DNA of 39,800 nt. Origin: Salinivenus iranica (GTDB taxonomy: Bacteria > Bacteroidota > Rhodothermia > Rhodothermales > Salinibacteraceae). Within the stretch, counting starts at the first letter, position 1. Each line of letters starts with the position of its first letter. Below the pieces are notes generated by a model that was not told the origin of the DNA, made no database searches, and worked only from the letters and a program-made list of their open reading frames with translations. The stretch covers positions 1-39,800 of the forward strand of contig NCRB01000032.1 in assembly GCA_002894665.1 (NCBI GenBank), written 5' to 3'. Shown piece by piece: positions 7,554-25,315 of the stretch. The position numbers and the translations under genes are program-made.

Positions 7554-7565
7554 CCCCGGGCGTCG

Positions 7566-9623: not shown

Positions 9624-9764
9624 GGGAGACGGAGCAGTGGTGAGCAGTCGGTTGACGTGTTCAACATAAGCAACCGGACGGGGCGAGTGCGAACCGTGTG
9701 CGCACTGATTTCAAGGAACACGCCGGGGCATTCCGGGCGTACGGGAATATCCACATATCGACAT

Positions 9765-9851
9765 GCCCGAGTGGCGGAATTGGTAGACGCGCGTGATTCA
9801 GGGTCACGTGTCCGCAAGGACGTGGAGGTTCGAGTCCTCTCTCGGGCACCA
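9765..9851 (+). tRNA. tRNA-Leu (anticodon CAG)
   Basis: The 87-nt gene folds as a class II tRNA. The acceptor stem GCCCGAG pairs with CTCGGGC. There is a D arm with GG, and the anticodon stem CGTGA/TCACG carries loop TTCAGGG, so the anticodon is CAG. A long variable arm is followed by a T arm with TTCGAGT, and the 3' ACCA is encoded. The long variable arm plus CAG means leucine (CUG codons). Its 3' 54 nt are the attachment core of the downstream element. Confidence 0.96.
9796..9849 (+). repeat. attL core (54-bp direct repeat, copy 1)
   Basis: It is identical over 54 bases to 17929-17982. It covers the anticodon arm, variable arm, T arm and acceptor 3' strand of tRNA-Leu, so integration restores a complete tRNA. 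Confidence 0.93.
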
Positions 9852-9859
9852 AGAAAAAC

Positions 9860-9902
9860 GCCCCTCAGAGCCTTTAAGTGGTGTTCTGAGGGGCATTTTC
9901 TG
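9860..9902 (+). terminator. Intrinsic terminator after tRNA-Leu
   Basis: A 10-bp perfect stem (9860-9869 with 9885-9894) is followed by ATTTTCTGTTT. It lies inside the element, so the element supplies a new terminator to the tRNA it interrupts. Confidence 0.9.
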
Positions 9903-9962
9903 TTTAGGCCGCTGACTCGATTTTGCACGAAATCGTGAGATATCGCAGCAAATCGAAAAGTT

Positions 9963-9993
9963 GTGGGGGAATTATGGGGGAACGCTCCCCCAC
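9963..9993. repeat. Arm-type integrase sites / int terminator-like hairpin
   Basis: Two direct copies of TGGGGGAA (9964-9971 and 9975-9982) are followed by an inverted copy, so GTGGGGGA (9963-9970) pairs with TCCCCCAC (9986-9993). A near-identical double copy occurs at 17839-17860 beside attR, which suggests integrase arm-binding sites. On the minus strand the hairpin lies just after the int stop and is followed by ACTTTT, so it may also end int transcription. Confidence 0.55.
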
Positions 9994-9996
9994 ACC

Positions 9997-11130
9997 TTAC
10001 GAGCTTCCGAACGTCTCCTCCATCGCCCGATCCATCACTTCCGGGCTGAGGTGGCTATACATCTCCGTCACTTGCGTACTGGAGTGTCCAAGAATTTCTG
10101 AAATCACACGGAGCGGAACGCCTTGCATCGAGAGCCACGAGCCGGTCGTGTGTCGGCACGAGTGAAAAGACAGTTCCTCCCGATCTGACAAACCCGCCTT
10201 ACGGACGTAGAACTTGAACCGCTTGGAGACCCGATCCGGCTTGGGCACGTCGTCATTGGCGTCTATAAACACTGGATCGTTGTCCAGCGGGCTTCGTGCC
10301 TCATGTATCTCTCGAAGCGTCTCCAGTGCATCTCCACGAAGCGGCACCGTCCGCTCGCGTCCATTCTTAGCGGTGAAGCCATCCCGGTTGCGGACCACGA
10401 GGCGCCCGGATTCGAGATCAACGTCTCCCCACCGGAGGTTCAGGAGCTCCCCGCGCCGTAGGCCGGTGCCCACCGCAACGCGAATCATCTCCTTCAACCA
10501 CATGTCTCGTGGGGTTGGCCCCGGTTCTCCCTCTCTCATCTCCCGATGGGCGTCCACGGCACGGAGGATTCGCTTAATGTCGTCCGGTTTGAGGAAGGCT
10601 TTCTCCTTCTCTTCCTTCCGAGGCTTGGATACGTCATCCACCGGGCTCTCGTCCACAAGCTCGTTCTCGACAGCCCACGAGAAGAACGCCCGCACGTGCC
10701 GGTAGCGGCTCCGCTTCGTAGCATTGGAGGGCTCCCCCTCGTTTGCCTGTCCCTCATTGACGCGGGCGTGAATGTAACTGTGGACGTGATCCGGCAGCAC
10801 GTCCCGAACCATAGCCCCGGTAGGCGTGTGCCCCACGAAGTTACTGAGCTTGTATTCGTACCCGTCGAGCGTGCTTTCTTGCAGGCCGTCTCGCTCCCTC
10901 GCCTCCAGAAACCGATCCACTGCGTCAGATACGGTCTCATTTTCCATGAGCCACCCGCCGCTCCAGGGATCGTAATCGCCCCGGGCGTACGCCTCTTCCA
11001 GACGGCGCAGTTTCGGTTCGGCTACCGACTTGCGACTCGTGCCGAGGGCCACCTCCTTCCGTTTCGGGGATCGATCGCTATCGTAGAATCGGGCGCTATA
11101 ACGCCCTTTGTGCTTCCGTAAAGAGGCCAT
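9997..11130 (-). CDS. int: Tyrosine-type site-specific recombinase (integrase)
   Basis: The 377-aa protein has an N-terminal arm-binding-like domain (about 1-60, ASLRKHKGRYSARFYD), a SAM-like core-binding domain (about 62-160) and a C-terminal catalytic domain. The catalytic residues are visible: Arg225 in GTGLRRGEL, Lys255 in the beta hairpin AKNGRER, His323 and Arg326 in HSCRHTTG, His349 in LGHSS and the nucleophile Tyr358 in MYSHLSP. It should catalyse integration at tRNA-Leu and excision with the excisionase. I chose the ATG at 11130, which fits the N-terminal domain. The longer frame overlaps the xis gene. A truncated relative lies at 28060-28389. Confidence 0.95.
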   Translation of the reverse strand: MASLRKHKGRYSARFYDSDRSPKRKEVALGTSRKSVAEPKLRRLEEAYARGDYDPWSGGWLMENETVSDAVDRFLEARERDGLQESTLDGYEYKLSNFVGHTPTGAMVRDVLPDHVHSYIHARVNEGQANEGEPSNATKRSRYRHVRAFFSWAVENELVDESPVDDVSKPRKEEKEKAFLKPDDIKRILRAVDAHREMREGEPGPTPRDMWLKEMIRVAVGTGLRRGELLNLRWGDVDLESGRLVVRNRDGFTAKNGRERTVPLRGDALETLREIHEARSPLDNDPVFIDANDDVPKPDRVSKRFKFYVRKAGLSDREELSFHSCRHTTGSWLSMQGVPLRVISEILGHSSTQVTEMYSHLSPEVMDRAMEETFGSS

Positions 11131-11158
11131 AACATATATGTTTAGATGTGAGAAACCC

Positions 11159-11374
11159 TTATTCGTCGCCATCCTCGTCTTCCAGCTTCCGCGCCCGGGC
11201 ACCTACGAGATTCGGTTCGAAATCCTCCCACTTCTCATTCTTGAGGATCATCCGGCGCCCACCGATCTCAACGTCCTGTAGGCGGCCATCGTCGGCCGCA
11301 CGATACAGGGTTGTTCGGCTGCAACCGACCTCTTCCGCTGCGTCGCTGAAGGAAATTACGTCGTCTGGCCTCAT
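11159..11374 (-). CDS. Excisionase-like helix-turn-helix DNA-binding protein
   Basis: The 71-aa protein carries a MerR/excisionase-type helix-turn-helix: ISFSDAAEEVGCSRTTLYRA followed by the wing DGRLQDVEIGGRRMIL. An acidic tail follows. Such proteins bend att DNA and direct the integrase towards excision, or regulate int. The stop is 28 bp before int, so the two form an xis-int operon. The ATG at 11374 gives the family length; the open frame upstream has no recognisable domain. A different role as a transcriptional repressor is possible. Confidence 0.75.
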   Translation of the reverse strand: MRPDDVISFSDAAEEVGCSRTTLYRAADDGRLQDVEIGGRRMILKNEKWEDFEPNLVGARARKLEDEDGDE

Positions 11375-11383
11375 TCGTCGTGT

Positions 11384-12535
11384 ATGTTGATTCCAAATCC
11401 TGCGCACTCCATCATTGATATCGGAACAGCGTGTTCCGTTATAGATGTCGCTTGCTCTGTCTGCTCTCACCAAACTTTGCAGCCCGTGAAATTCGTCGAG
11501 CCTGCTGAGCTCTATTCTCCGACCCAACCAATATTGCCACCCCGCTTCCTATTTACAGACGACGACGGAAATGTACATCCGGAGCGCGAGACTGAAGTCA
11601 TTGAGGAGAATTACAACGAACTGGTGAGCCTCCTACAAAATGGTGAGGGGTACGAGACACTTTTGGCTATAAAGAAACGTCTGGAGGAATCCGCTCAGAG
11701 CTCGGAAGCGGAAGCTGCTGAGTCCGAGAGCCGGTTCAATTACCTTCAAAGTCAGCTCTACGGAATCCAAAGACGAGTTGTCAAGATCGCAAATTCGGAA
11801 GCCTCCGATAAGCAAGACTTGAACAGCGTTCGCGATCATATTCTTGAACGTCCCATGGGAGAACATTGGCGTTCAGAGGACGGCAAATTTCGGCATGAGT
11901 CTAAAACAGGGGAATGGTCTGTCTATACTGACCAGGCAGAGGACCACAACCGAACATGCAAAGCAACAACAGAACTATCAGAACTCCGAATCACCTACAC
12001 ACCGCAAAGTGGTCAGTGGGGCTACGAATTCAATTCAGACTACCTAACCCAGTATGAGACAGTTATCTGCGGGGGTTACGAAACTTGGCAGGAAGTAATT
12101 GACCTCCTAAAGAGGAGATTGCAGAATCAGGAACACGAGTACGACCAGAAAAGAAGGGCGAGGGATTACCTACTTTTTAGAATATCTGTGTTGGACAGAG
12201 TTCTCTACCGCTTTGAAGCCTTTGGATCTGTGGAGCCTATGGAGAAAGAAGCCAAACGTCAATCTCTTGAGACGTTACCTGATATCTTCGAGGGACGACG
12301 GACGCTGTTGCGGCACGCCGAGAAAGTTGTTGAAAAGTACAGAGCCGAACCAAAGAGCTTACCCGAAACGATGAGTGACCTAAAGGCATGGATCGGAAGG
12401 GATGGCGAAAACGCAGTCACACAACTACAGAGCGCGATTCGGGAGGCGGACTTGGCACATCGATACAAGGACGGCCATCCTGAATCCTTCTGTGAGCTTG
12501 TTGAAGACCTCGTATGCCAGTCTATCAAAGAATAA
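11384..12535 (+). CDS. Unrecognised protein with helical, charged N-terminal half, orphan of the element
   Basis: I do not recognise this protein of up to 383 aa. It is soluble, strongly charged, and predicted to be largely helical (residues about 70-150 and 230-380), including a likely coiled coil around EESAQSSEAEAAESESRF. A central beta-like stretch contains EDGKFRHESKTGEWSVY and TPQSGQWGYEF. It has no signal peptide, TM segment or catalytic motif I can name. Base composition is clearly richer in A/T than the core genes. The start is uncertain: the ATG at 11384 is only 9 bp from the divergent xis start and would place a palindromic operator inside the coding region. A GTG at 11486 is in frame and leaves room for a divergent promoter. 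Confidence 0.65.
   Translation: MLIPNPAHSIIDIGTACSVIDVACSVCSHQTLQPVKFVEPAELYSPTQPILPPRFLFTDDDGNVHPERETEVIEENYNELVSLLQNGEGYETLLAIKKRLEESAQSSEAEAAESESRFNYLQSQLYGIQRRVVKIANSEASDKQDLNSVRDHILERPMGEHWRSEDGKFRHESKTGEWSVYTDQAEDHNRTCKATTELSELRITYTPQSGQWGYEFNSDYLTQYETVICGGYETWQEVIDLLKRRLQNQEHEYDQKRRARDYLLFRISVLDRVLYRFEAFGSVEPMEKEAKRQSLETLPDIFEGRRTLLRHAEKVVEKYRAEPKSLPETMSDLKAWIGRDGENAVTQLQSAIREADLAHRYKDGHPESFCELVEDLVCQSIKE
11422..11438. promoter_or_regulatory. Palindromic operator candidate upstream of xis-int
   Basis: CGGAACA and TGTTCCG form perfect 7-bp arms around a 3-bp centre, 48 bp upstream of the xis start and at the head of the divergent orphan gene. The layout suits a repressor site controlling xis-int or both directions. 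Confidence 0.45.
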
Positions 12536-12635
12536 ACTGTTCTCTACAGACATAACTCATCTGCCTTCACGGATAAACTTTTTTACCCGTGCACATATCC
12601 CCATTCACACGGCGTGAGAGGCCATAACATATGTT

Positions 12636-12700
12636 TCACGCGTGATCTCATGCACATGTGCATGCACACCACACGTGGGTATCACTTCGTGTGTGCACAC
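12636..12700. repeat. Cluster of perfect palindromes
   Basis: TCACGCGTGA (12636-12645), CATGCACATGTGCATG (12649-12664) and GTGTGCACAC (12691-12700) fall within 65 bp, all built from CA/TG/GTG steps. They may be binding sites for the element's HTH protein or initiator. Confidence 0.6.
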
Positions 12701-12770
12701 TGGCTATGTGGGGAGACATAACATGCTCCGGCCCGGGATAGGCCGTCCGTTTCGGAAGTGTTAACGCACG

Positions 12771-12794
12771 ATATTCCAAAATAATCTGGAATAT
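12771..12794. repeat. AT-rich inverted repeat
   Basis: ATATTCCA and TGGAATAT form perfect 8-bp arms around AAATAATC. This is the most AT-rich spot of the block and a plausible duplex-unwinding or initiator site. Confidence 0.6.
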
Positions 12795-12801
12795 TTTGAC
12801 C

Positions 12802-12843
12802 TTCCGGCCTGATGCGTGTGAAAGGGCCTGCATCGGGCCGGAA
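12802..12843. repeat. Long hairpin, 14-bp stem
   Basis: 12802-12815 pairs with 12830-12843 over 14 bp with a single G-T mismatch and a 14-nt loop. No T-tract follows, so it is not a terminator. It could be part of a structured RNA or a single-strand initiation site. Confidence 0.6.
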
Positions 12844-12881
12844 ACCGGATGTAAACATTGAATCAGCCGTGTCCCGGCGGT

Positions 12882-12890
12882 TGTGGATAA
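12882..12890 (-). promoter_or_regulatory. DnaA box (perfect consensus)
   Basis: The plus strand reads TGTGGATAA, the complement of the consensus TTATCCACA. Next to AT-rich and palindromic DNA and upstream of primase-like genes, it suggests host DnaA helps start replication of the element. Confidence 0.55.
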
Positions 12891-12897
12891 CAGAAAA

Positions 12898-12935
12898 GGG
12901 GCACCCTCTTTCCGGCCCGAGGGTGCCCTTTTTCT
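12898..12935. terminator. Bidirectional intrinsic terminator
   Basis: GGGCACCCTC (12898-12907) pairs perfectly with GAGGGTGCCC (12919-12928). T-runs follow on both strands (TTTTTCTGTTT on plus, TTTTCTGTTA on minus). No coding region ends here, so it must end a non-coding transcript or insulate the origin from the replication genes. Confidence 0.85.
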
Positions 12936-13018
12936 GTTTCGGAGCCTGGAGAAATCGATCTGTATAGTTCTCTTATCGAATACCTAAAGGCCGGGGTCGG
13001 CATAGACCGAATCACACC

Positions 13019-13354
13019 ATGGAAGCCCCCCAAGTAGAAGAGAAAATTTCGAATCCCAAAGAACCAGACAGTCTCGAAGGTGAAATCTGCGCTCTAATCG
13101 ATGGGCTGAGAAGCGAGGTTCAATCTCTCCGTAATGAAATCACAGCTCTTCGAAAGAAGGAATCGCCCAATGGACCGGATACTCTTCTTACGCGAGAGGA
13201 AGCGGCGCACCGGCTCTCCATCTCGACGCGGACACTCGACGACATGGCCGACGCTGGAGAAATACAGCCGGTTCGCATACGGGGACGCGTCCTATACGCG
13301 CCTGAGACCCTCCAGGCATACATCCGGCGTCAAGCCGAGGAGGGTAGCAAATAA
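13019..13354 (+). CDS. Helix-turn-helix DNA-binding protein (excisionase/MerR-like HTH)
   Basis: The 111-aa protein has an N-terminal coiled-coil segment (about 20-48, LIDGLRSEVQSLRNEITALR) and a C-terminal HTH (about 55-105, LLTREEAAHRLSISTRTLDD followed by the wing VRIRGRVLYAPETLQAYI). This resembles the HTH_17 group found in element-encoded regulators and excisionases. The coiled coil suggests a dimer. It heads a three-gene set: its TAA overlaps the ATG of the next gene (TAATG), a sign of translational coupling. It likely regulates the replication genes or binds the adjacent palindromes. Confidence 0.75.
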   Translation: MEAPQVEEKISNPKEPDSLEGEICALIDGLRSEVQSLRNEITALRKKESPNGPDTLLTREEAAHRLSISTRTLDDMADAGEIQPVRIRGRVLYAPETLQAYIRRQAEEGSK

Positions 13355-13587
13355 TGAATACTCTTCAACCCAGCAAGCAAAATCAGCAGCAGGAGGAGCG
13401 AAAGACCCTGTCCGATCCACTACTGAATCGCCCAACGCATCCGATAGATGCCTTCGAATTTGGTCGGCGATGGGGACGTAGAATGAAGGTGATTTTTCCG
13501 GATCACCTCATGCACATCCTCCGGGGCGTACGGGCCGGGATTAAGGAAATCCGCCAACGACGCGGGGAGGTGAAAAATGTCTCTTAG
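13354..13587 (+). CDS. Small unrecognised protein coupled to replication genes
   Basis: The 77-aa protein is not recognised. It is polar and Gln-rich at the N-terminus, with a basic helical C-terminal half (FGRRWGRRMKV ... IKEIRQRRGEVK) that could bind nucleic acid. The ATG overlaps the previous stop by one base, and the purine-rich GGAGGGTAG lies about 10 bp upstream. The 3' end overlaps the primase gene by 11 bases, so all three genes are translationally coupled. The context suggests a replication accessory or regulatory role, but no domain supports this. Confidence 0.65.
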   Translation: MNTLQPSKQNQQQEERKTLSDPLLNRPTHPIDAFEFGRRWGRRMKVIFPDHLMHILRGVRAGIKEIRQRRGEVKNVS

Positions 13588-16009
13588 TGCAGAACGAATC
13601 CGCTCTCATCTAAATGCCCACGACTGCAGACGCATTCTGAAACGGTGCGGATTCCAGCTCAATGGTGATCACGGAACCAAACTCTCAGGTGTCCTCGGGC
13701 CGACGGAGTTAGGGGAAGGTGACGCAGGCAATTTTTCCATTGATCTGGAGAAGGGCCTGGTCAAGGACTGGGGGTCTTCTCATTACAAGGGAGATATATT
13801 TAGCGTCGTCCAGGACGTGCACGGCCTCGACTTTCCCGAGGCCCTGGAATGGATCGTGAACGAGCTCAATCTCGACGTGGAATCCGATGGATGCCCGAAC
13901 GTACAACCCACCGACGCCTCCTCCCCGGAATCGAACCGGTCGCCAAACGAGGAATCCGAACCGGAGCCGGTCGTCTCCCACGAACACGCCCGCCGCTGGC
14001 ACGAGCGGTTGATGAGCGACACGGACGCGGCCCAAGCCGCCCGGTCGTATCTGACAGATGAGCGCGGGCTCACAAGGGACGTTCTGAAGGCCGCCCGCAT
14101 TGGCCTTGCCCACAGTCCGGGCGACTACCGGGCAACGTGGTGGATCATGATTCCGGTGCTCCATCGGAGCGGTGGGAATCCGCCCCCGATTGTTGCCGTG
14201 AAGGGATTCGGCTTCAACCCGGCCGCTACGGATTGGAAGCGCACGGATGACGGGGGCAAGATCCCGCGAAATGCCGGTTCGGCTGCCCTCTACGACCTCG
14301 TGCCGTCCGATCCGTTCAACAGTCCGGTCGTCGTGTGTGAGGGGGAGCTCGACGCGCTTTCCGCCCTCTCTCACGGCTTTAACGCCGTAACCGGAACGAG
14401 CGGTGCAGGCACCTTCCGTGACGAATGGGCCGTGTGTATGTCACGCCTTGCCCCGGCGCAAGATCACGGAATTGTCGTCGCGTTCGACGGAGACGAGAAG
14501 GGCCGCAAGTGGGGACCTGAGCACGCCGCAACACTTCACGAGGCCGGTCTCAACGTTTGGGTTGCCTCCCTCCCCGATGGCCGGGACGTGAACGACGTGC
14601 TCGTGAGCGGCGGGCGTGACGCGCTGAAATCGCATTTCGCACAGGCCGAACCCTTTTCCCCCACGGAGGAGGCGCCCGCTTCTGAGGAGACTGTAGACCG
14701 GGCAGAAGTGGAGGAGACAAAAGCGGATTCCGTCCCCTCTTACGAGCCGTTTCCCCTCCGTGCGCTCCCCGGCCCGGTGCGTGCCTACGTGCGGGCCGCT
14801 TCCGAGGCCCTTCCGGCGCCCCCGGCAATGGTTGCCGTGCCCACGCTGTCCGTGTTGAGCGGTGCCATTGGGGACGCTGCCCGCCTCCAACTGAAACGCT
14901 CGTGGACGGAGCCCGCGACGCTGTGGACGGTGCTCGTGGCCCCTTCGGGCTCTACGAAGTCCCCCGCCTTCAAACACGCGGTGCGGCCCATCTTCCGCCG
15001 CGAATCGGAGGCCCGGGACGAGTACGAACAGGCCCTTGCCGATTGGAAGGCACAGGAGGAGCCCGAGGAACAGGACAAGCCCACGCGGGACCGCTATCGA
15101 ACCGGCGACGCAACGCCGGAAGCAATCGTCAAGATTCTGAACGAGAACCCGCGCGGGATTCTACTCGCACGGGACGAGCTGGGAGCATGGTTTGGCTCGT
15201 TCGACCGCTACGTGAATGGGGCCGCCGATCTCCAGTTTTGGGTTGAAGTTTGGCAAGGAATCCAGGCGTCCCGGGACCGCGCCGGGGAAGGCAACACGAC
15301 GGTAGACACGCCCGCCGTGCCCGTGACTGGGACGATCCAACCGGGCACCCTCACGGAGAAGTTGGACGAGATCCATTTCGACACCGGATTCGCCGCCCGC
15401 CTCATCTTCTGCCAGCCGCCCCCCAAACCGAAGCGGTGGACCGAAGCGGACGTGAGCCGGGAAGTACGGGACCGTTACGACCGTCTGTTGGGGCGCCTCT
15501 ACGGAAAGGACTGGCAACAGTCTGTCTCCTTAGAGCCGTACACGCTCGTCTCTCTGAGCCCCGACGCGAAAGCCGCGTGGATCGAATACTACAACGAGGC
15601 GAACCGCTCACTGGAGGCCCGCCCGGAAGGCCCCGCGAAAGCCGTTGCCGCGAAAGGGATCACACACACCGCCCGCCTTGCCCTCATTCTGCACCTTTGC
15701 CGGAAGGCCAATGGGGAAACCGACTCGAACGAGGTGGACGCCGCAAGCATGGAGGCCGCCCTCGAAATTGGACAGTGGCTCACATGCGAGACATTGCGCG
15801 TCTACAAAGAGATGGGTCTCGACGACGCAGCCCTGTCCCCCAAACGCCGGTTACTGCAACGCCTCCCTGACCGATTCGAGACAGCAGAGGCGATAGAAGT
15901 TGCAGAGGAAGAGGAAATTCCTGAACGTACGTGCAAAAAGTGGCTGCGGGACCTCGTGGACGGTCCCAACCTGGAGAAGATCAAACGGGGGCTCTACCTA
16001 AAATCCTAA
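13577..16009 (+). CDS. Toprim/DUF3987 primase-helicase-like replication protein
   Basis: The 810-aa protein has three parts. Residues about 15-100 resemble the DnaG zinc-binding domain fold (FSIDLEKGLVKDWG ... KGDIFSVVQDVHG ... FPEALEWI) but lack its zinc ligands. A Toprim domain (about 185-355) shows EGELDALSA with Glu255 and FDGDEKG with Asp304/306, then DVNDVL. A DUF3987 helicase-like domain (about 390-720) has the P-loop-like APSGSTKS (455-462) and the Walker B-like ILLARDELG (Asp533-Glu534). A C-terminal winged-helix-like region ends the chain. Such proteins prime and unwind element DNA. GGGGAGGTG six bases before the ATG is a strong ribosome site and fixes the start, within the previous gene. 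Confidence 0.88.
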   Translation: MSLSAERIRSHLNAHDCRRILKRCGFQLNGDHGTKLSGVLGPTELGEGDAGNFSIDLEKGLVKDWGSSHYKGDIFSVVQDVHGLDFPEALEWIVNELNLDVESDGCPNVQPTDASSPESNRSPNEESEPEPVVSHEHARRWHERLMSDTDAAQAARSYLTDERGLTRDVLKAARIGLAHSPGDYRATWWIMIPVLHRSGGNPPPIVAVKGFGFNPAATDWKRTDDGGKIPRNAGSAALYDLVPSDPFNSPVVVCEGELDALSALSHGFNAVTGTSGAGTFRDEWAVCMSRLAPAQDHGIVVAFDGDEKGRKWGPEHAATLHEAGLNVWVASLPDGRDVNDVLVSGGRDALKSHFAQAEPFSPTEEAPASEETVDRAEVEETKADSVPSYEPFPLRALPGPVRAYVRAASEALPAPPAMVAVPTLSVLSGAIGDAARLQLKRSWTEPATLWTVLVAPSGSTKSPAFKHAVRPIFRRESEARDEYEQALADWKAQEEPEEQDKPTRDRYRTGDATPEAIVKILNENPRGILLARDELGAWFGSFDRYVNGAADLQFWVEVWQGIQASRDRAGEGNTTVDTPAVPVTGTIQPGTLTEKLDEIHFDTGFAARLIFCQPPPKPKRWTEADVSREVRDRYDRLLGRLYGKDWQQSVSLEPYTLVSLSPDAKAAWIEYYNEANRSLEARPEGPAKAVAAKGITHTARLALILHLCRKANGETDSNEVDAASMEAALEIGQWLTCETLRVYKEMGLDDAALSPKRRLLQRLPDRFETAEAIEVAEEEEIPERTCKKWLRDLVDGPNLEKIKRGLYLKS

Positions 16010-16027
16010 GCTTTTCGCCGCTTGCAC

Positions 16028-16094
16028 TTTGCATTTGCTGCATGAGTCTTCACATAACCCCCGATTTTATGAAGAGAAGTGCAGTAAATGCAAG
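16028..16094. repeat. Large imperfect hairpin after the primase gene
   Basis: Outer arms 16030-16042 and 16080-16092 match with one mismatch over 13 bp and can be extended by one or two pairs. An inner stem (TCTTCA 16047-16052 with TGAAGA 16070-16075) continues the fold. The arms contain repeated TGCA/TTTGC steps. It lies 19 bp after the stop. It could end the transcript or act as a single-strand replication site. No T-tract follows. Confidence 0.5.
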
Positions 16095-16213
16095 ATGCAA
16101 TCGAACTCGCCGACGATTAAGGTTATTCAATTTGTCTCAGAAGAGAACTCGGTCTGTAGGTCGTGTGAGCTTACGCCTACCCTAAATATACATACGTATT
16201 GATATTACACCTT

Positions 16214-16654
16214 CTAATCATTTTCATCATTGACAAAGACCCCAGCATCGACTGGAGGAAGAATAACTTTCTGAAGCGTAGTACCTGATGTTTTCTCTAT
16301 AATTATACCTCTTGTGGTAGATATTGCCAACGAAGCTATTTTGATACCGAAATCATCCGGCACCTGCACAGATTCGTCGTCTTGACGCAATTCTTCTAAG
16401 TTTTCAATTTTAAATCCAGTCTCAGTATCTATTTCAATTATCTCTTCATCTTCTTTTGTTGCCTCTACAATCACACGCACCCAAATAATTTTACTATCAA
16501 TGTCTACCCTAAACCCAACCCTGACCGTAAAATTGGGGAATTCTTCTCTTTCCGGTTCACGATCTGGCTCGTTGAACTCAAAGCGACGAGTACGTACCTC
16601 ATCGAACCTAAACCTAATATCCCTTTCGTTATCCTCTTCCAATACGTCTTCCAT
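16214..16654 (-). CDS. Possible SecB-like protein, last gene of the attR-side cassette
   Basis: The 146-aa protein is acidic and beta-rich, with no signal or TM segment. Strands include FPNFTVRVGFRVDID and KIIWVRVIVEATKED. The C-terminal ISTTRGIIIEKTSGTTLQKVILPPVDAG resembles the end of SecB-fold proteins, where a Thr-x-Arg-Gly helix is followed by a Leu-Pro-Pro motif. SecB-like proteins outside the export pathway act as chaperones, for instance in toxin-antitoxin-chaperone systems. The resemblance is by eye and is weak evidence. Only two bases separate it from the preceding gene, so they are co-translated. Composition is AT-rich compared with the chromosome. Confidence 0.6.
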   Translation of the reverse strand: MEDVLEEDNERDIRFRFDEVRTRRFEFNEPDREPEREEFPNFTVRVGFRVDIDSKIIWVRVIVEATKEDEEIIEIDTETGFKIENLEELRQDDESVQVPDDFGIKIASLAISTTRGIIIEKTSGTTLQKVILPPVDAGVFVNDEND

Positions 16655-16656
16655 CG

Positions 16657-17070
16657 CTATGAAAGGGCTCTTTTAGCAGCATTTCCTTCTGTATAGCTTT
16701 CATATCTACCCTCTTGCATAATATCTTCTATGCTACAGTCTATCTCCCACTGATTATAATTACCCTGTGGTATATTAATATTTTGGGTGTAACTATTTTC
16801 CATGAATGAAAAAAATGGATAAATAATAGTGGTAATGCTCCTATTTAGAACACCTTCAGGAGACCTGAAAATTACGGTCTTTTCAACTCCATTGGAGTTG
16901 TTGATATTCGACAAATCATATTCTGGATCGGCGCTATAGCTGCTCTCCTTTTCAGGAAGATCAAGGTCGTAACAAAAGACATAAATCGAAACGAGAGCGT
17001 ACAAGACCCCGACGCCTACGGCCAATGAAGCTGCCCAGAACACAAACTGACTAAAGCTGATAGCGTCCAT
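16657..17070 (-). CDS. Single-pass membrane protein of unknown function (attR-side cassette)
   Basis: The 137-aa protein has one N-terminal TM segment (about 7-33, FVFWAASLAVGVGVLYALVSIYVF) and a polar, Asn/Ser/Tyr-rich domain of about 100 residues. I recognise no family. AAGGT five bases before the ATG supports the start. The gene is between the four-TM gene (30 bp away) and the SecB-like gene (two bases). A pairing of a membrane-anchored substrate and a cytosolic SecB-like partner is conceivable but is inference. Confidence 0.65.
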   Translation of the reverse strand: MDAISFSQFVFWAASLAVGVGVLYALVSIYVFCYDLDLPEKESSYSADPEYDLSNINNSNGVEKTVIFRSPEGVLNRSITTIIYPFFSFMENSYTQNINIPQGNYNQWEIDCSIEDIMQEGRYESYTEGNAAKRALS

Positions 17071-17100
17071 ACCTTGCGGCGATTATGCCTGTGATGCTGC

Positions 17101-17535
17101 TCAACTCTGTTCGAGCCGCAGCAGCGAATTGTGGGCGAGTGCGCTGAGTACCGTCATTGTGGCAGTTAGTATACCCGGGAAGATGAGGTTAGGATTCTCA
17201 TAGGTCGGGTTTCCTATTCGATTTCCTCGCAAGTCTCCGTACACGGCGGCTGAGACTATAACGAGAATCAGCAGCAACCAGTATAGACCGGTGTGGAAAC
17301 GCGTAGCTGCGTCGGCCTTTCGGATATCCGATATATCCTTAAGCCCAGAGGCGCTGATCACAATCCCGAGGTATAGAATCTCCGGGGCCTGGAGGATCGA
17401 GGTCCACTCAAGCTGGAGAAATCCAGACCATGACAGCCCGCCCGCTTCTGTCAATATTAAGGCTGCAGCGATGACATATGGGAGGAGGGGGAAGATGATT
17501 CGAAAGAGAGACCAGCGACCGAATCCTGTAGGCAA
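17101..17535 (-). CDS. Four-TM membrane protein of unknown function (attR-side cassette)
   Basis: The 144-aa protein has four predicted TM helices (about 10-30, 47-65, 82-100, 117-136) with short loops and a basic N-terminus (GRWSLFR). This puts the N-terminus most likely inside the cell. No family recognised. The best start is a TTG at 17535, with no clear ribosome site, so the true start could differ by some codons. It is the first gene of a compact three-gene minus-strand unit ending against the element boundary. The gene content is compatible with an accessory defence or exclusion function, but no motif proves it. Confidence 0.62.
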   Translation of the reverse strand: MPTGFGRWSLFRIIFPLLPYVIAAALILTEAGGLSWSGFLQLEWTSILQAPEILYLGIVISASGLKDISDIRKADAATRFHTGLYWLLLILVIVSAAVYGDLRGNRIGNPTYENPNLIFPGILTATMTVLSALAHNSLLRLEQS

Positions 17536-17928
17536 GGCGACCGACGAGCCTGAAGTGTAGAGTGATTGCTACGTTGGTCGAAAAGCACGCAAGAGGAGCA
17601 TCTCCTAAGCGTGTTTCTATCACAAATCAAGCAGAATGCACCGAGAAATGCAATACGTTTTTCCTGCCTCCAGCATATGCGGGATCCCACTGATTAACTC
17701 TATCGAATCCACTGATTCCTCGCCACTTGAGATGACCAGGGCCGCCTACAATTCGCTGAGAGATCCTTCGGAGAGAACGGAAGCTCGGAGTAAAATCCGT
17801 GAATTGGTGCGCTGCGAGACAGCGAAAATATAGTGTACTGGGGGAAATATGGGGGAAACGATCTTAATGAACGCCCAAAATCGGCGTTTTGAGCTTACAA
17901 GCATCGTTTTACAACAACCCTGCACATT
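17536..17928. other. Non-coding stretch between cassette and attR
   Basis: No supportable gene in 393 bases. It probably holds the cassette promoter, near the 17535 end, and the integrase arm repeats at 17839-17860. Short open frames here have no domain or ribosome site. Confidence 0.6.
17839..17860 (+). repeat. Arm-type integrase sites near attR
   Basis: Two direct copies of TGGGGGAA (spaced TATGGGGGAA), 69 bp before the attR core, match the pair at 9964-9982 beside attL in sequence and orientation. Shared sites at both ends are typical of lambda-like integrases. Confidence 0.6.
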
Positions 17929-17982
17929 ATTCAGGGTCACGTGTCCGCAAGGACGTGGAGGTTCGAGTCCTCTCTCGGGCAC
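17929..17982 (+). repeat. attR core (54-bp direct repeat, copy 2)
   Basis: It is identical to 9796-9849. It carries the 3' 54 nt of tRNA-Leu up to the first two bases of the ACCA end but not the 5' acceptor strand or D arm. It is the displaced original tRNA end, not a tRNA gene. Confidence 0.93.
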
Positions 17983-17990
17983 GACACCTC

Positions 17991-18027
17991 CCCCTCTGGG
18001 TCCGTTGACCTGGAGGGGTTCCTTTTT
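17991..18027 (+). terminator. Displaced original terminator of tRNA-Leu
   Basis: A 12-bp stem (17991-18002 with 18007-18018, two G-T pairs) with a CGTT loop is followed by TTCCTTTTT. It lies directly after attR, as expected for the terminator that served tRNA-Leu before integration. Confidence 0.75.
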
Positions 18028-18028
18028 C

Positions 18029-18070
18029 CGCGGGCTGAGAGGGCCGTTTTACGCGGGCTGAGAGGGCCGT
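18029..18070. repeat. 19-bp tandem direct repeat
   Basis: The same 19 bases occur at 18029-18047 and 18052-18070 (period 23). The rest of 17983-18484 holds only this, the terminator and a gene remnant. Confidence 0.75.
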
Positions 18071-18267
18071 GGGGAACGAAAGTGATCGAAATTTGGAGGT
18101 TCAAATCTTCCCTTAAGCACTATTCACGAGGCTCGCCCGACAGGTCGCCGATCGGGCTGTTTTCAGTGCTCGCAGCGCTGAAAGATGGTCCAAGCATCAC
18201 TTCTGCCAGTGCACGGCATCCCAGTGTCAGTGGAACTGTCAGGGTTGAATTCACAATCAGAGTGGGT

Positions 18268-18350
18268 CACGACCTGGACCGGCCAAACGGCCTGATTGTA
18301 GTCGCGGAAAACGTTCAGGAACCGCTCGGTTGTAAAAGGAAGATCTATTG
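18268..18350 (-). pseudogene. Remnant of a DUF6064-like membrane protein N-terminus
   Basis: The minus strand encodes LPFTTERFLNVFRDYNQAVW then PVQVV, which closely resembles the conserved start of DUF6064 integral membrane proteins as I recall it. The similarity stops abruptly after about 25 residues, the TM helices are missing and no start codon is in place. It is therefore a decayed fragment between attR and the metal-resistance genes. Confidence 0.4.
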
Positions 18351-18484
18351 AGCAGAGCGCAGATGGTGAATCGCGTCGCCCCGGTTCTCCAAAAATGCCT
18401 GCACCTTCTCGAGAACGCTTACAGAAATCGGTCGCCTTGGCGTAGGGGAATCCCTCCGACCGGTGATCCGGGACTGCCCGCCCA

Positions 18485-21400
18485 TCACACCGAAAGCTCC
18501 TGCGCCTGCTCCTTCCGAAGCTGCTCCGCATCGCCGAAGCGGTCGAAGAGAACCGGAACGACAACCATGTTGAGGAGGGTGGAGGTGAGGAGCCCGCCGA
18601 TCGTCACGATGGCGAGGGGCGTCTGGATCTCTTTTCCCGGCTCCCCGCCGCCCAGAGCGAGAGGAACGAGCGCGAGGCCCGCCGTGAGGGCCGTCATCAG
18701 GATGGGGTTGAGCCGCTCCATCGAGCCCTGCACCACGGCCTCGCGGAGGGACTTGTCCTTCTGTAGCAGGGTGATGTAGTGGCTCACAAGGAGGATGCCG
18801 TTCCGCACGGCAATCCCGAAGAGCGTTACGAACCCGACCATCGCCGCGATGTCGAGCGTGCCGCCCAAGAAGAGGAAGAGGGCGGCCACCCCGCCGGTGA
18901 GAGCAAGCGGCAGATTTACGAGGACGAGACCGGCGGCTCGTGTGCTGCCAAACTCCTGGTAGAGGAGGAGGAAAACCACTAGGAACGCGACAAGGGAGAG
19001 CCACCCGATCCGCCGGGAGGCCTGTCGGGCGTTTTCGTACTGCCCGCCCACCTCGTAGTAGTAGTTCTCGGGCATCTCGACCTGCCCCGAGATCCGCCGC
19101 TGCAAGTCGGCCACGACGCTCCCCACGTCGCGTCCGCTCGTATTAGCCGAGACGACGATCTTGCGCTGCACGTCCTCCCGGCTAATCGTGTTGGGCCCGC
19201 GCTCGTGCTGAACAGTGGCAAGTCGGGAGACCGGCACTGTCGGCCCGGTAGGCGTGTCAATGAGAACGTTGCGAATCGACTCGGCCCCGGCCCGGCGGGC
19301 AGAGTCAAGCCTCACAGTGAGGCCAAAGGCCAACTGGCCCTCGCGCACCTGGGAGACGACTTCGCCGCCTACCAGCGCCTCGACGGCGTGGTTGAGATGG
19401 CCGGGGGTAACGCCGTATTTCGCCATCTCTTGGCGCTTCGGATAGAGGCGAAGCTGGGGCACATCGGCCTGTCGGGCCACGGAGAGGTCGACGAGGCCGG
19501 GCGTGCCCTCGATGGCTCCTCGCACCTGCCCCGCCAGGTCACGCAACTCGTACAGCTCCGGCCCAAAGATTTTGAGGGCGATATCCGTCCGCGTCCCCGA
19601 GAGCATGTGATCGATGCGGTGCCCGATGGGCTGGCCGATCGTGATGTTGGTCCCCGGAATCGATGACAGACGAGCGCGCACGTCGGCGGTGACCTCGCTC
19701 ATTTCCATCTCCGAGAGGTCCACCTGCACGTCGATCTCCGACGCATTCGCCCCTTGGGCGTGGGCGCTCAGCTCGGCGCGGCCAGTGCGGCGGGAGGTGG
19801 CCTCGACGGCCGGGTGCTGCAGGAGACGATCTTCGATTTCCTTGGCGATGCCCGTGGAGGCCTGTAGCCCCGTGCCCGGCGCCGTGACCGCGCTAATCAC
19901 AAGCGTCCCCTCTTGGAACTCCGGCAGGAAGCCGCGCCCCATGAAGGGGAGCGTCGCCAGCGTGGCCGCGAGAAGCACGGCGGCCGCCCCGAGCACAAAT
20001 CGGGAACGGCCCAGCACCCAATCCAGCGTGGAGCGATATGCGCTGTGCAGTCGCCGGACGAGCCACGTGTCCTCTCCTTCCTGGACCGTCGAGGACTGTG
20101 GGAGCAGGTAGTAGCAGAGGACCGGCGTCACCGTCACCGCCACGAAGAGCGAGGCGAGAATGGCGACGATGTAGGCCAGCCCGAGGGGCTGGAGGAGCCG
20201 CCCCTGCACGCCGGAAAGGAAGAAGAGGGGCACAAACACGACGCTAATGATGAGCGTCGCGTTCAGTATGGGCCCGCGCACCTCCATCGATGCCTCATAG
20301 ACCACCCGGAGGACCGGCTTCTGCTCCCCATCGGGCGCCTGCGCATTTTCCCTGAGCCGTCGGAAGACGTTCTCTACGTCGATAATCGCGTCGTCGACGA
20401 GCGCCCCGATCGCGATCGCCAGCCCCCCGAGCGTCATGGTGTTGATCGTGATGCCGAGCCCGTACATCACCACCAGGGCGACCGACAGCGAGAGCGGAAT
20501 GGCCAGAATTGAGATGGCCGTCGTCCGCACGTTCCACAGAAAGAGAAACAGAATAAGGATCACGAGGAAGGCCCCGTCCCGCAGCGCCTCGATCACGTTG
20601 CTGACGGCGAGGGAGATAAAGTCGGCCTGCCGGAAAATGGAGCGATTCACCTCCATCCCCGCGGGAAGCTGTCCCTCGATCTGGTCGAGTTCGGATGAGA
20701 CCCGCTCGGTGAGTTCGAGGGTATTGGCACCGGGCTGCTTCTGGATGGAGACGATGACGCCCGGCTCGCCGCTTACCGATCCGGTGCCGAGGCGGGGACG
20801 CTGGGTGCCGATCTTTACCTCGGCCACGTCCCGAAGCCGGATCGGTGCCCCATCCCGGCTCGTCACCACCGTGGACCCAATCTCTTTGATTTCATTGGTC
20901 CGCCCGACGCCACGAATGAGCACCTCGCGCCCATCCTGCTGGTAGACGCCCCCCGCCGCGTTCTCGTTAGAACCCTCCGCCGCCTCCATCACCTGCGACA
21001 AGGAAATCCCGAGCGCCCGCATCCGCTCCTGGTCGACGATCACCTGATAGGCCTTCACCTCGCCCCCATGCGGGATCACCTGCGCGACCCCGTCGACGGC
21101 CAGCAGGCGGCGGCGCACGACGCGATCGGCGGCGGTCCGCACCTCGCGCATCGAGTGGTCCTCGCTCGTGAGGCCCACCAGTAGGATTTCGCCCATGATG
21201 GATGTGATCGGCGCCATCACGGGCGCGTCCACCCCCTCCGGCAGCTGGCCGCCTACGAGCTGGAGCTTCTCGCTCACAATCTGGCGGGCCTGGTAGATGT
21301 CGGTCCCCCACTCGAACTCGACCCACACGATAGAGTAGCCCTGCGCGGAGCTGGACCGCACGCGCCGGACGCTCGCCGCCCCGTTCACGGCCGTCTCGAT

Positions 21401-21604
21401 GGGGTAGGTCACCAGCTTCTCCACCTCCTCGGGGGCCATGCCGTGCGACTCGGTAATCACTGTCACGCGCGGGGCCGTTAGGTCCGGAAACACGTCCACC
21501 GGCATCGTGAGGGCCGCGTATCCGCCCGCCGCGAGAAGAAGCGTCGCGCAGGCGAGCGTCACGAGCCGGCTGGTAAGGGCCCATTGAATCGTACGATCGA
21601 GCAT
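18485..21604 (-). CDS. cusA: CusA/CzcA-type heavy-metal efflux RND pump
   Basis: The 1039-aa protein has the RND layout: TM1 (about 13-32), a periplasmic loop, TM2-6 (about 340-490), a second loop, and TM8-12 at the C-terminus. TM4 carries AIGALVDDAIIDVEN (398-412), which fits the AxGxxxDxAxxxxEN pattern described for monovalent Cu/Ag-type pumps better than the Zn/Co/Cd pattern. Other family stretches are MPVDVFPDLTAPRV, FLSGVQGRLLQPL and GHRIDHMLSGTRTDIALKIF. It exports metal ions by proton antiport from the inner membrane through the adaptor and TolC partner. It is the last gene of the leftward operon. The metal is not certain. Symbol given by family. Confidence 0.9.
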   Translation of the reverse strand: MLDRTIQWALTSRLVTLACATLLLAAGGYAALTMPVDVFPDLTAPRVTVITESHGMAPEEVEKLVTYPIETAVNGAASVRRVRSSSAQGYSIVWVEFEWGTDIYQARQIVSEKLQLVGGQLPEGVDAPVMAPITSIMGEILLVGLTSEDHSMREVRTAADRVVRRRLLAVDGVAQVIPHGGEVKAYQVIVDQERMRALGISLSQVMEAAEGSNENAAGGVYQQDGREVLIRGVGRTNEIKEIGSTVVTSRDGAPIRLRDVAEVKIGTQRPRLGTGSVSGEPGVIVSIQKQPGANTLELTERVSSELDQIEGQLPAGMEVNRSIFRQADFISLAVSNVIEALRDGAFLVILILFLFLWNVRTTAISILAIPLSLSVALVVMYGLGITINTMTLGGLAIAIGALVDDAIIDVENVFRRLRENAQAPDGEQKPVLRVVYEASMEVRGPILNATLIISVVFVPLFFLSGVQGRLLQPLGLAYIVAILASLFVAVTVTPVLCYYLLPQSSTVQEGEDTWLVRRLHSAYRSTLDWVLGRSRFVLGAAAVLLAATLATLPFMGRGFLPEFQEGTLVISAVTAPGTGLQASTGIAKEIEDRLLQHPAVEATSRRTGRAELSAHAQGANASEIDVQVDLSEMEMSEVTADVRARLSSIPGTNITIGQPIGHRIDHMLSGTRTDIALKIFGPELYELRDLAGQVRGAIEGTPGLVDLSVARQADVPQLRLYPKRQEMAKYGVTPGHLNHAVEALVGGEVVSQVREGQLAFGLTVRLDSARRAGAESIRNVLIDTPTGPTVPVSRLATVQHERGPNTISREDVQRKIVVSANTSGRDVGSVVADLQRRISGQVEMPENYYYEVGGQYENARQASRRIGWLSLVAFLVVFLLLYQEFGSTRAAGLVLVNLPLALTGGVAALFLFLGGTLDIAAMVGFVTLFGIAVRNGILLVSHYITLLQKDKSLREAVVQGSMERLNPILMTALTAGLALVPLALGGGEPGKEIQTPLAIVTIGGLLTSTLLNMVVVPVLFDRFGDAEQLRKEQAQELSV

Positions 21605-21673
21605 CTTTCTGCCTGTGTGGCTTGAAAACGATGAGCCGATTCCCCACTCCGAATCCCGCCCTCTGAACTCCAG

Positions 21674-23257
21674 TCAGTGCGTATGCCCGTGGCCGATCTG
21701 ACTGGTGTTCAGCGAAGCGAGGTAGACCTGGTAGGCGCCGCTCGTAACGACGTGCTCTCCCGCCTCGACGCCCCGCTCGACGAGGGTGTATTGCCCATCG
21801 GTGGGACCCAATTGGAGAGGCCGTCGCTCGAACGATTCGCCGCCGGTTTGCACGTAGGCCGCCGGCTGGCCGTCTTCGGTCTGGATGGCTTCATTCGGGA
21901 TGGTGATCCCCGTCGTACCGTCGTCGAGAAGAAGGCGGGCATCGGCCATCATGCCGATTTTGAGAGCGCCGTTCGGGTTGGGCGCCTCAAGGCGAACGGG
22001 GAGCGTGCGCGTATCGGCATCGATGGACGCCCCCGTCGAGACGACTTGGCTTGCCTCGTAGGCAGTGTCGCTGCCCTCGACGGTGAATACGGCCCCGGTC
22101 GCCCCGCTCGCGCCAGCCGCGTGCTCGGCGGGCACCCGAAGGCGGAGCCACACGCGGCTCGGGTCCACAATGGTGTACAGGACCGTGCCGACCTCCACGC
22201 GGCTTCCGGGCGCGAGATGGCGCTCCTGAACTCGTCCGCTGATTGGGGCCTTAAGGTGGTAATTGAACCCGGAGTCGCCCTTGGGCCTCCCAATGGAACC
22301 CGACGCCGTTTCGGGCACCGCCCCTCCGCTGGCTCCCCCCATCGATTCGAGCGCGGCCCGGGCCAGTTCCAGGTCGTGCCGCGTCTCGACGAGCCGCTTC
22401 TCCGGGATCGCCTCGGCCTCGACCAGCCGCTCGGCCCGGCGCACCTCGCGCTCCAGGCGTTCGACGCGGCCCATTAAATCGGCGTAGGAGCCCTCTCCGC
22501 CGGAGGGACTAAGGATGCCCAGCGTTTGTCCTTCCTGTACCCGGTCGCCGGGAGCGGGCATGTCCAGATTTGCCTGGGCGGGCGTGAGGCCGCTCACCGG
22601 CGCCGACACCTTCGCGTGGCGCCCCGCGACCGGCTCAATCGTACCGTGAGCCTCAATGGACCGGCGGACCGTCCGTCCCCGCGCCTCCGCGACGCCAAAG
22701 GCGGTTTCCCACTGCTGCTCCTTGAGGTACGAGATCTCGGCCGTACTGCCGCCGGGCGCAGGTGCCGCCGAGGCGCTCTCATAGACAGTCAGGTCGCCAA
22801 CCTCAACGGTGTCCTGCGCCTGCGGTCCCTCCACGACCGCAAAGAGGCGAAACGTCCCGGTCTCCGGGATCGTGGGCTGGGGCGTGAAGATGCCGGGCTC
22901 CGGCGGCCCCTCCACCGTATGCACGTATGCCGCGCCGTCCGGGCGGCGGAAGCGAAGCGTGAGCGTCCCTTCTGTGAGCGGGCGGGAGCCGTCCAGATGC
23001 GTCACGTGAACGGCCCACGGCGCGCTTTCCTGCCCCGCCACCATCACGGGATGCTCAGCGAATATTTCGAGACGGTCGGACCACGCGGTCGTAGTGATTC
23101 CGCTTCCGTGGGCACTCTCCGCCGTCGCCTGGGATGCGGAATGGCTGTGGGCGTCTCCTCCGTGCGAGTGGTCCCCGGAGGAATCCCCATTGCAGCCAAG
23201 AAGAAGCGCGCCGGTGCTAAGGAGGGCGGCAAGTGCCAGGCGAAAAGCCAGAGTCAT
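21674..23257 (-). CDS. cusB: CusB-type RND periplasmic adaptor, lipoprotein with His-rich N-terminus
   Basis: The 527-aa protein starts with a lipoprotein signal (lipobox LLLGC, about residues 20-24) and then DHSHGGDAHSHSAS, a likely metal-binding stretch. A beta-rich extra domain (about 55-160) resembles the N-terminal domain of some CusB/CzcB adaptors. It is followed by the membrane-fusion core: lipoyl-like and coiled-coil segments (about 190-320), then beta-barrel and membrane-proximal domains. The start at 23257 places the signal peptide correctly; the longer frame upstream reads the His-rich gene out of frame. It links the CusA-type pump to the outer-membrane channel. It lies 69 bp before cusA and 52 bp after the His-rich lipoprotein. 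Confidence 0.88.
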   Translation of the reverse strand: MTLAFRLALAALLSTGALLLGCNGDSSGDHSHGGDAHSHSASQATAESAHGSGITTTAWSDRLEIFAEHPVMVAGQESAPWAVHVTHLDGSRPLTEGTLTLRFRRPDGAAYVHTVEGPPEPGIFTPQPTIPETGTFRLFAVVEGPQAQDTVEVGDLTVYESASAAPAPGGSTAEISYLKEQQWETAFGVAEARGRTVRRSIEAHGTIEPVAGRHAKVSAPVSGLTPAQANLDMPAPGDRVQEGQTLGILSPSGGEGSYADLMGRVERLEREVRRAERLVEAEAIPEKRLVETRHDLELARAALESMGGASGGAVPETASGSIGRPKGDSGFNYHLKAPISGRVQERHLAPGSRVEVGTVLYTIVDPSRVWLRLRVPAEHAAGASGATGAVFTVEGSDTAYEASQVVSTGASIDADTRTLPVRLEAPNPNGALKIGMMADARLLLDDGTTGITIPNEAIQTEDGQPAAYVQTGGESFERRPLQLGPTDGQYTLVERGVEAGEHVVTSGAYQVYLASLNTSQIGHGHTH

Positions 23258-23309
23258 GGGCGGACGGTCGTTGACGTTGGAGGGCGGCAATCCGAAAAGG
23301 GCAAGCTCA

Positions 23310-23645
23310 CTACTCGTGAGAATGCTCCTCACCATCATGGGAGTGACTGTCCTCCCCGTGACTGTGGCCGTCTCCACTCGCCTCCGTGCTGCCGGTGTCC
23401 ATGCCGGAGGTATCGAGGCGGGTCTCGGCGGTATCCTGGTGGGCATGATCCCCGTCGTGGGCGTGGTCCCCATCGTGGGCATGATCGCCATTTTCATGGC
23501 TCTGCGCATTTCCCTCGGCATGGGTGTGAGAATCCTCGCCGTGCGAATGGCTCCCCTCACTGTCGCCCCCGCAGGCCGGGAGCGTGAAGGCAAGCGCGAC
23601 GGCAAGAAGAACGGTGATCATCGAAGAGGTCCAGGTGCGGTTCAT
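23310..23645 (-). CDS. Small histidine-rich lipoprotein, probable periplasmic metal binder
   Basis: The 111-aa protein has a signal peptide with lipobox LPAC (about 22-25). After it comes a low-complexity tail with 17 His among many Asp, Glu, Gly and Ser residues. GDHAHD is repeated in tandem (three units), and HSH and SHTH motifs occur around it. No folded domain is visible. It lies between the TolC-type gene and the adaptor gene in the metal-efflux operon, so a role as metal buffer or as a feeder of ions to the adaptor is likely. The adaptor's N-terminus has the same His-rich style, so the two may share origin. I do not know a named family. Confidence 0.75.
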   Translation of the reverse strand: MNRTWTSSMITVLLAVALAFTLPACGGDSEGSHSHGEDSHTHAEGNAQSHENGDHAHDGDHAHDGDHAHQDTAETRLDTSGMDTGSTEASGDGHSHGEDSHSHDGEEHSHE

Positions 23646-23693
23646 GTCGGAAGGCGTTCGTGGTTGGAAAGCAGCTTGAAACGAAAGGGCGTG

Positions 23694-25028: not shown

Positions 25029-25031
25029 CCG

Positions 25032-25217: not shown

Positions 25218-25282
25218 GACAAGTAGCTGTGATCAATGGAGCAGCGAGCGCGTGGGTAACATATGTCCCGGCGGCTGTTGCC

Positions 25283-25315
25283 AGGTTGTCGTCAACCTTA
25301 GAAATCCCAAAGGTT
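25283..25315. promoter_or_regulatory. Operator candidate between the metal operon and its regulator genes
   Basis: AGGTTG-TCGT-CAACCT is a perfect 6-bp dyad (25283-25298). A third half-site AAGGTT at 25310-25315 forms a second dyad with AACCTT at 25294-25299. It lies in the divergent gap (25218-25332) between the efflux operon and the response regulator, where an OmpR/CusR-type regulator would bind. Confidence 0.4.

What the first reader, a model, noticed from the sequence alone, without database searches (positions are those of the whole stretch)
16214..17535. Three-gene AT-rich cassette (4-TM, 1-TM, SecB-like) against attR: candidate undescribed system
The genes are packed (30 and 2 bp apart), on the opposite strand to the replication genes, AT-richer than both chromosome and replication cassette, and sit at the element's end where satellites and integrative elements carry cargo. 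The last protein has a SecB-like C-terminus. SecB-like chaperones occur in toxin-antitoxin-chaperone systems, and small membrane proteins are common effectors of abortive infection. A membrane effector kept in check or delivered by a SecB-like partner is a reasonable guess, no more.
Basis: inference. Interest (0 to 1): 0.72.

Follow-up and report, generated by a model that had tools for sequence, protein, structure and literature searches.

The report
SecB-chaperone cassette with membrane gene pair
A small mobile element carries a SecB-like chaperone of the kind that normally holds a toxin-antitoxin pair in check and can trigger when phages infect, but here the pair upstream is two membrane proteins with no detectable relatives, so it may be a chaperone-controlled membrane toxin; this has not been tested and is a single example.

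Summary
Three co-directional genes (4-TM 144 aa, 1-TM 137 aa, soluble 146 aa; gaps 30 and 2 bp) lie next to attR of an ~8.1-kb tRNA-Leu element. The 146-aa protein is SecB-like by predicted fold (best PDB matches all SecB, VIA Z 11.2; M. tuberculosis TAC chaperone 5mtw Z 8.9). Its relatives in Bacteroidota are mostly the third gene of toxin-antitoxin-chaperone (TAC) operons: 64 of 97 surveyed have an HTH antitoxin directly upstream; most of the rest are one Chlorobiaceae clade of solitary SecB. The window's chaperone sits inside the TAC part of the tree, but its element holds no toxin or antitoxin of that kind. The two slots hold the membrane proteins, which have no relative in any collection searched. 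The 1-TM protein's tail has two features of the antitoxin tails (Trp plus polar residue ~30 from the end; small last residue). Best reading: a TAC variant with membrane toxin and membrane-anchored, chaperone-dependent antitoxin, for phage defence or element maintenance. Rivals: an orphaned chaperone beside unrelated genes, or a delivery chaperone for a membrane exclusion pair. New variant of a known kind; function inferred, one instance.

The parts
17101..17535 (-). P0003: 144-aa protein with 4 predicted TM segments (positive-inside pattern fits N-in/C-in); sits in the slot of the TAC toxin; no detectable relatives
16657..17070 (-). P0002: 137-aa protein, one N-terminal TM helix (AF2 helix 6-35) followed by a ~100-residue tail without confident structure; tail has QWEID 30 residues from the end and ends RALS; sits in the slot of the TAC antitoxin; no detectable relatives
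16214..16654 (-). P0001: 146-aa SecB-like chaperone, PADLOC PDC-M64C (PDLC04763, E 8.9e-13)
9765..9851 (+). tRNA-Leu(CAG), integration target / attL side
9789..9849 (.). attL-side direct repeat (61 nt)
17922..17982 (.). attR direct repeat (95% over 61 nt; last 54 nt identical)
9997..11202 (-). tyrosine integrase (PF00589)
11159..11527 (-). HTH_17 excisionase-like protein
13019..13354 (+). HTH_17 protein
13577..16009 (+). Toprim primase / DUF3987 helicase of the element

Best explanation
The cassette is a toxin-antitoxin-chaperone-type module in which the usual soluble toxin and HTH antitoxin have been exchanged for a membrane pair. P0003 (4 TM, first gene) would be the toxin or effector acting on the membrane. 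P0002 (1 TM, second gene) would hold P0003 inactive; its unstructured tail would depend on P0001, the SecB-like chaperone, for stability. When P0001 is drawn away, for instance by an abundant unfolded phage protein as shown for CmdTAC, P0002 would be degraded (its small C-terminal residue resembles the ClpXP-type ends of TAC antitoxins), P0003 would be freed, and the cell would stop growing or die, aborting infection; the same logic would make cells dependent on keeping the element. Shown: gene layout, SecB fold (predicted), descent of P0001 among TAC chaperones, absence of a normal TA pair. Inferred: that P0002 and P0003 are partners of P0001, their roles, membrane damage, the phage trigger.
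For: Fold: AF2 model (pTM 0.74) matches SecB first (Foldseek E 3e-5, VIA Z 11.2) and 5mtw, the M. tuberculosis TAC chaperone bound to a ChAD peptide. Family: PDC-M64C in PADLOC; 64 of 97 relatives have an HTH antitoxin directly upstream, 51 of them also the toxin, e.g. HigB + HTH_3 + SecB-like in L042. Tree: P0001 is sister (SH-aLRT 90) to 17 Chlorobiaceae TAC chaperones, in a set of 39 rows with 37 TACs. Layout: order, sizes (144/137/146 aa against about 160/137/150) and spacing copy the TAC operons. Tail: 39 of 56 antitoxins end in A/G/S against 124 of 634 other proteins (Fisher 2e-14); Trp + polar/charged residue 24-40 from the end in 8 of 29 antitoxins of this clade against 17 of 352; both together 13 of 66 against 12 of 1080; P0002 has both. 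CmdA, a known TAC antitoxin, is helices plus a long unstructured tail ending LAA, and antitoxins of that system vary widely (PMC11618068, PMC9519451). Same-genus and same-order TACs (L125, L126) lie beside genes that read like type I RM HsdS.
Against: P0002 and P0003 have no homologue anywhere searched, so co-conservation cannot be shown. None of the other surveyed SecB-like loci has a membrane pair. The tail features were noticed with P0002 in view (post hoc) and rest on one protein. Flanking charge of the P0002 helix (about 0 before, -4 after; own count) slightly favours the tail outside the cell, which would hide it from a cytosolic chaperone after insertion. The low AF2 confidence of the tail comes from a single-sequence run and is weak evidence of disorder.
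Confidence: 0.45

Rival explanations
1. Orphaned chaperone: P0001 descends from a TAC that lost its toxin and antitoxin, and P0002 and P0003 are unrelated small membrane genes that accumulated in the element's cargo slot.
For: No TA remnant in the element; P0002 and P0003 without relatives; a related element in G342 at the same tRNA carries different genes in the same slot; P0003 differs from the other two in GC (53 against 40 and 39%).
Against: P0002 and P0001 are 2 bp apart on one strand, as antitoxin and chaperone are in TACs; P0001 keeps an intact frame, the family's conserved residues and a SecB-like predicted fold; P0002 carries the antitoxin-like tail features.
Confidence: 0.27
2. Delivery chaperone: P0001 works like export SecB and keeps the small membrane proteins P0002 and/or P0003 insertable; the pair is a superinfection-exclusion or other envelope function of the element, without a toxin.
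For: SecB fold; TAC chaperones complement an E. coli secB mutant (PMC5105189); small membrane proteins can be targeted post-translationally (PMC4257090); charge pattern of P0002 allows a tail outside the cell.
Against: P0001 groups with TAC chaperones and not with the solitary SecB clade of Chlorobiaceae; an export role of TAC-type chaperones in their own hosts is not established.
Confidence: 0.2
3. The membrane pair forms the module's sensor rather than its toxin: P0001 together with the anchored P0002 signals to an effector elsewhere in the element or genome.
For: The element has an uncharacterised 383-aa protein (11384-12535) that could take part.
Against: No such split arrangement seen in relatives; the TAC operons surveyed are compact.
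Confidence: 0.08

Closest known systems
PDC-M64 (PADLOC phage-defence candidate, models A/B/C)
   Same: Third gene: P0001 matches PDC-M64C PDLC04763, E 8.9e-13; relatives' toxin and antitoxin match M64A/B and M64B/C models
   Different: No match of P0002 or P0003 to any M64 model; no HTH; membrane proteins instead
CmdTAC (PD-T4-9)
   Same: Three genes ending in a SecB-like chaperone; the antitoxin is not an HTH protein but N-terminal helices plus a long unstructured tail with a degron-like end (PMC11618068)
   Different: Toxin is an ADP-ribosyltransferase; no membrane component described
M. tuberculosis TAC (HigBA1 with SecB-like Rv1957; 5mtw) and HigBAC/MqsRAC
   Same: Chaperone fold (Z 8.9), gene order toxin-antitoxin-chaperone, Trp residues in the chaperone-binding tail (PMC5105189)
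   Different: Toxin is a ribonuclease and the antitoxin is a classical soluble HigA/MqsA-type protein
RosmerTA / PanTA membrane-depolarising toxin-antitoxin systems
   Same: Membrane-active toxin held by an antitoxin, phage defence (PMC10440598)
   Different: No SecB-like chaperone is described there; P0002 and P0003 match no PADLOC model, RmrA models included
Export chaperone SecB
   Same: Fold
   Different: Sequence identity 12-18% in structural alignments, no PF02556 hit, lies on a mobile element, TAC lineage in the tree

Membership tests
TAC (toxin-antitoxin-chaperone) | SecB-like chaperone of TAC lineage as last gene | tested here: met
   fold; lineage; position
TAC (toxin-antitoxin-chaperone) | Three-gene compact operon in the order toxin-antitoxin-chaperone | tested here: inconclusive
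   order, size and spacing match but the identity of genes 1 and 2 as toxin and antitoxin is not shown
TAC (toxin-antitoxin-chaperone) | Antitoxin with C-terminal chaperone-addiction tail | tested here: inconclusive
   P0002 has the Trp+polar site ~30 from the end and a small last residue, joint background 12/1080; post hoc, single case; ChADs show no significant similarity among themselves (PMC5105189)
TAC (toxin-antitoxin-chaperone) | Recognisable toxin (HigB/RelE/MqsR/ART or PDC-M64A/B) | tested here: not met
   Pfam, NCBIfam, PADLOC, PHROGs and own HMMs on stop-to-stop frames
TAC (toxin-antitoxin-chaperone) | Toxicity without chaperone, rescue with it; phage protection | not testable with these tools
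   needs experiment
PDC-M64 | All three components match M64A, M64B, M64C | tested here: not met
   only C matches; not filed as PDC-M64
SecB (PF02556) | Pfam model match | tested here: not met
   no hit at E up to 10; fold similarity only
SecB fold | Four-stranded antiparallel sheet followed by long helix, structural match to SecB | tested here: met
   (predicted monomer; tetramer not modelled)
Integrative element at tRNA | Integrase, attL/attR repeats at tRNA, replication gene, variable cargo slot | tested here: met

The most novel reading that the evidence does not exclude
A chaperone-addicted membrane toxin system: the SecB-like TAC chaperone has been recruited to a membrane pair, so that loss of the chaperone, for example to a phage structural protein, frees a 4-TM pore-like effector. 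As far as the papers searched here show, it would be the first TAC whose toxin and antitoxin are both membrane proteins.
Probability: 0.4. Interest if true: 0.78.

Novelty: new variant of a known kind. Interest (0 to 1): 0.56.

Why it matters
TAC systems sense infection through a chaperone, and the TAC toxins described in the papers read here are cytosolic enzymes acting on RNA or translation. If the same chaperone can control a membrane effector, chaperone addiction is a general plug-in for control, and orphan membrane proteins beside SecB-like genes become searchable defence candidates. The tail features found across the antitoxins give a simple handle for such a search. The survey also documents many TAC operons in Chlorobiaceae and other Bacteroidota whose chaperone Pfam does not recognise as SecB.

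Tried and rejected
Membership in PD-lambda-2: the toxin and antitoxin of L042 match PD-Lambda-2_A/B models, but the third component of PD-lambda-2 is P4-antitoxin-related, not SecB-like (PMC9519451), so dropped. Hidden or decayed TA pair in the element: own toxin and antitoxin HMMs on all stop-to-stop frames of 9600-18100 found nothing. Other loci with a membrane pair beside SecB-like: none in about 98 fetched loci; L045, L048 and L202 checked by eye. Homologues of P0002/P0003 in 296 phylum, 114 order (P0003 only) and 100 class genomes, viral contigs, plasmids, phages (P0003 only) and PDB: only chance-level hits. P0001 in plasmids, phages and viral contigs: none. A literature search for PDC-M64 and for SecB-like + membrane protein + abortive infection returned no papers. 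The class D beta-lactamases and thioesterases lower in the fold lists stand well below the SecB rows and were not pursued. Promoter and terminator scan of the cassette gave no promoter signal above the shuffles.

Full report
Observation. Frames this long are unlikely by chance for P0001 and P0002 (9e-6, 7e-5) and less so for P0003 (4e-3); codon-position GC looks coding for P0001 and P0003 and is weak for P0002. Hydropathy gives 0, 1 and 4 TM segments for P0001, P0002 and P0003. The element is bounded by a 61-nt repeat at tRNA-Leu(CAG) and has a tyrosine integrase, two HTH_17 proteins and a Toprim/DUF3987 protein.

What P0001 is. No Pfam or NCBIfam model matches it, but PADLOC gives PDC-M64C at 8.9e-13. 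An AF2 model from P0001 plus 16 relatives (pLDDT 78.7, pTM 0.74) has four strands and a long helix. Foldseek against the PDB puts SecB, the M. tuberculosis SecB-like chaperone and two streptococcal proteins of unknown function in the first 20 ranks, E 3e-5 for the best; VIA-align gives Z 11.2 for SecB 1ozb and 8.9 for 5mtw, the M. tuberculosis Rv1957 chaperone bound to the ChAD peptide of its antitoxin. The next unrelated rows are at Z 5.6.

Where its relatives sit. P0001 finds relatives in 56 of 296 phylum genomes; a family profile finds them in 79 of 395. In the loci fetched, 97 SecB-like ORFs were classified by gene order and by HMMs made from the neighbours: 64 have an HTH antitoxin immediately upstream, 51 of them with a toxin before it. 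In L042 the toxin is Pfam HigB_toxin and the antitoxin HTH_3; in L031 and L046 toxin and antitoxin match PDC-M64 models. The 33 without antitoxin are mainly a Chlorobiaceae clade of solitary SecB. A same-genus copy (L125) and a same-order copy (L126) are TAC operons next to HsdS-like genes; HsdS identity is read from the sequence, not from a family search.

Tree. With 91 SecB-like proteins, P0001 is sister (SH-aLRT 90) to 17 Chlorobiaceae TAC chaperones within a set of 37 TACs, one solitary protein and the window; the 27 solitary Chlorobiaceae proteins form another, fully supported clade. It is a quick tree with several long branches, so deep placement is provisional. P0001 therefore most likely descends from a TAC chaperone. 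The element holds no toxin or antitoxin of the known kinds, nor a remnant.

What sits in their place. P0003 and P0002 take the toxin and antitoxin slots, with matching sizes and spacing. Neither has relatives in phylum, order or class genomes, viral contigs, plasmids, phages or PDB as far as each was searched. P0002 is one confident helix (residues 6-35) followed by 100 residues below pLDDT 50 in a single-sequence model. Antitoxin tails in this family end in A, G or S in 39 of 56 cases against 124 of 634 other proteins. In CmdTAC the antitoxin ends LAA, a ClpXP signal, said to be like other TAC antitoxins (PMC11618068). Several tails in P0001's clade carry Trp plus a polar or charged residue 24-40 positions from the end (8 of 29, against 17 of 352 other proteins); the M. 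tuberculosis work used a W108A/W137A mutant of the ChAD-bearing antitoxin (PMC5105189). Both features together occur in 13 of 66 antitoxin-HMM hits and 12 of 1080 other proteins; P0002 has both (QWEID, RALS). These criteria were set after seeing P0002, near-copies were only partly removed, and the background may contain P0002 itself, so the weight is moderate.

Mechanism. Known: in CmdTAC the chaperone CmdC holds the antitoxin stable, the phage capsid protein competes for it, ClpP removes the antitoxin and the toxin is freed (PMC11618068). Inferred by analogy: P0001 stabilises P0002, P0002 restrains P0003, and loss of P0001 frees a membrane toxin. Toxicity through the membrane is known for other TA systems (RosmerTA, PMC10440598) but not, in the papers searched here, with a SecB-like chaperone. 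A RelE-fold toxin with a TM domain (ToxM, PMC11980606) is a further membrane TA, of another kind. The main weaknesses are the single instance, missing homologues and unknown topology of the P0002 tail.

Surroundings. A related element in G342 at the same tRNA has a homologous integrase and primase but different genes between primase and attR, so this is a variable cargo slot. The DNA to the right of attR ends in an 88% remnant of the same integrase (28070-28338), and the closest relative (G340) resumes homology at window 28552, so the region 17983-28338 is probably a second inserted segment.

Verdict. It is filed as a new variant of a known kind, works-like TAC, not as a member of PDC-M64 or any named TAC family, because the toxin test was not met and the antitoxin test is inconclusive.

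Noticed in passing
window 17983-28338: Segment right of attR with a metal-efflux-type RND gene and its adaptor ends in a 269-bp, 88% identical remnant of the element's integrase (28070-28338); the closest relative G340 resumes homology at 28552, suggesting tandem or compound integration at one tRNA-Leu.
   Followed up: partly
L224 (G342) 1600-9710: Related element at the same tRNA with homologous integrase and a split primase, but different cargo next to attR, including one protein that reads like a small phage or terminase-type protein.
   Followed up: partly
L125 6606-8145; L126 5541-7055: TAC operons in the same genus and order, each beside a gene that reads like a type I restriction specificity subunit.
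   Followed up: no
L055, L068-L070, L172, L174-L197 (27 rows in the tree): A vertically conserved-looking solitary SecB clade in Chlorobiaceae, distinct from the TAC chaperones; some genomes hold both (e.g. L033 and L185, same genome G201).
   Followed up: partly
antitoxin genes in L031-L070, L125-L142, L164-L203: TAC antitoxins end in A/G/S in 70% of cases (20% background), with AA the commonest end; some carry Trp plus a polar or charged residue about 30 from the end. Useful as a search signature.
   Followed up: partly
window 11384-12535: 383-aa coiled-coil-like protein of the element without any family match.
   Followed up: no
L042 8033-9378, L044: PADLOC PD-Lambda-2_A/B models match HigB/HigA of what is in fact a HigBA-SecB operon, so these labels can mislead.
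   Followed up: yes
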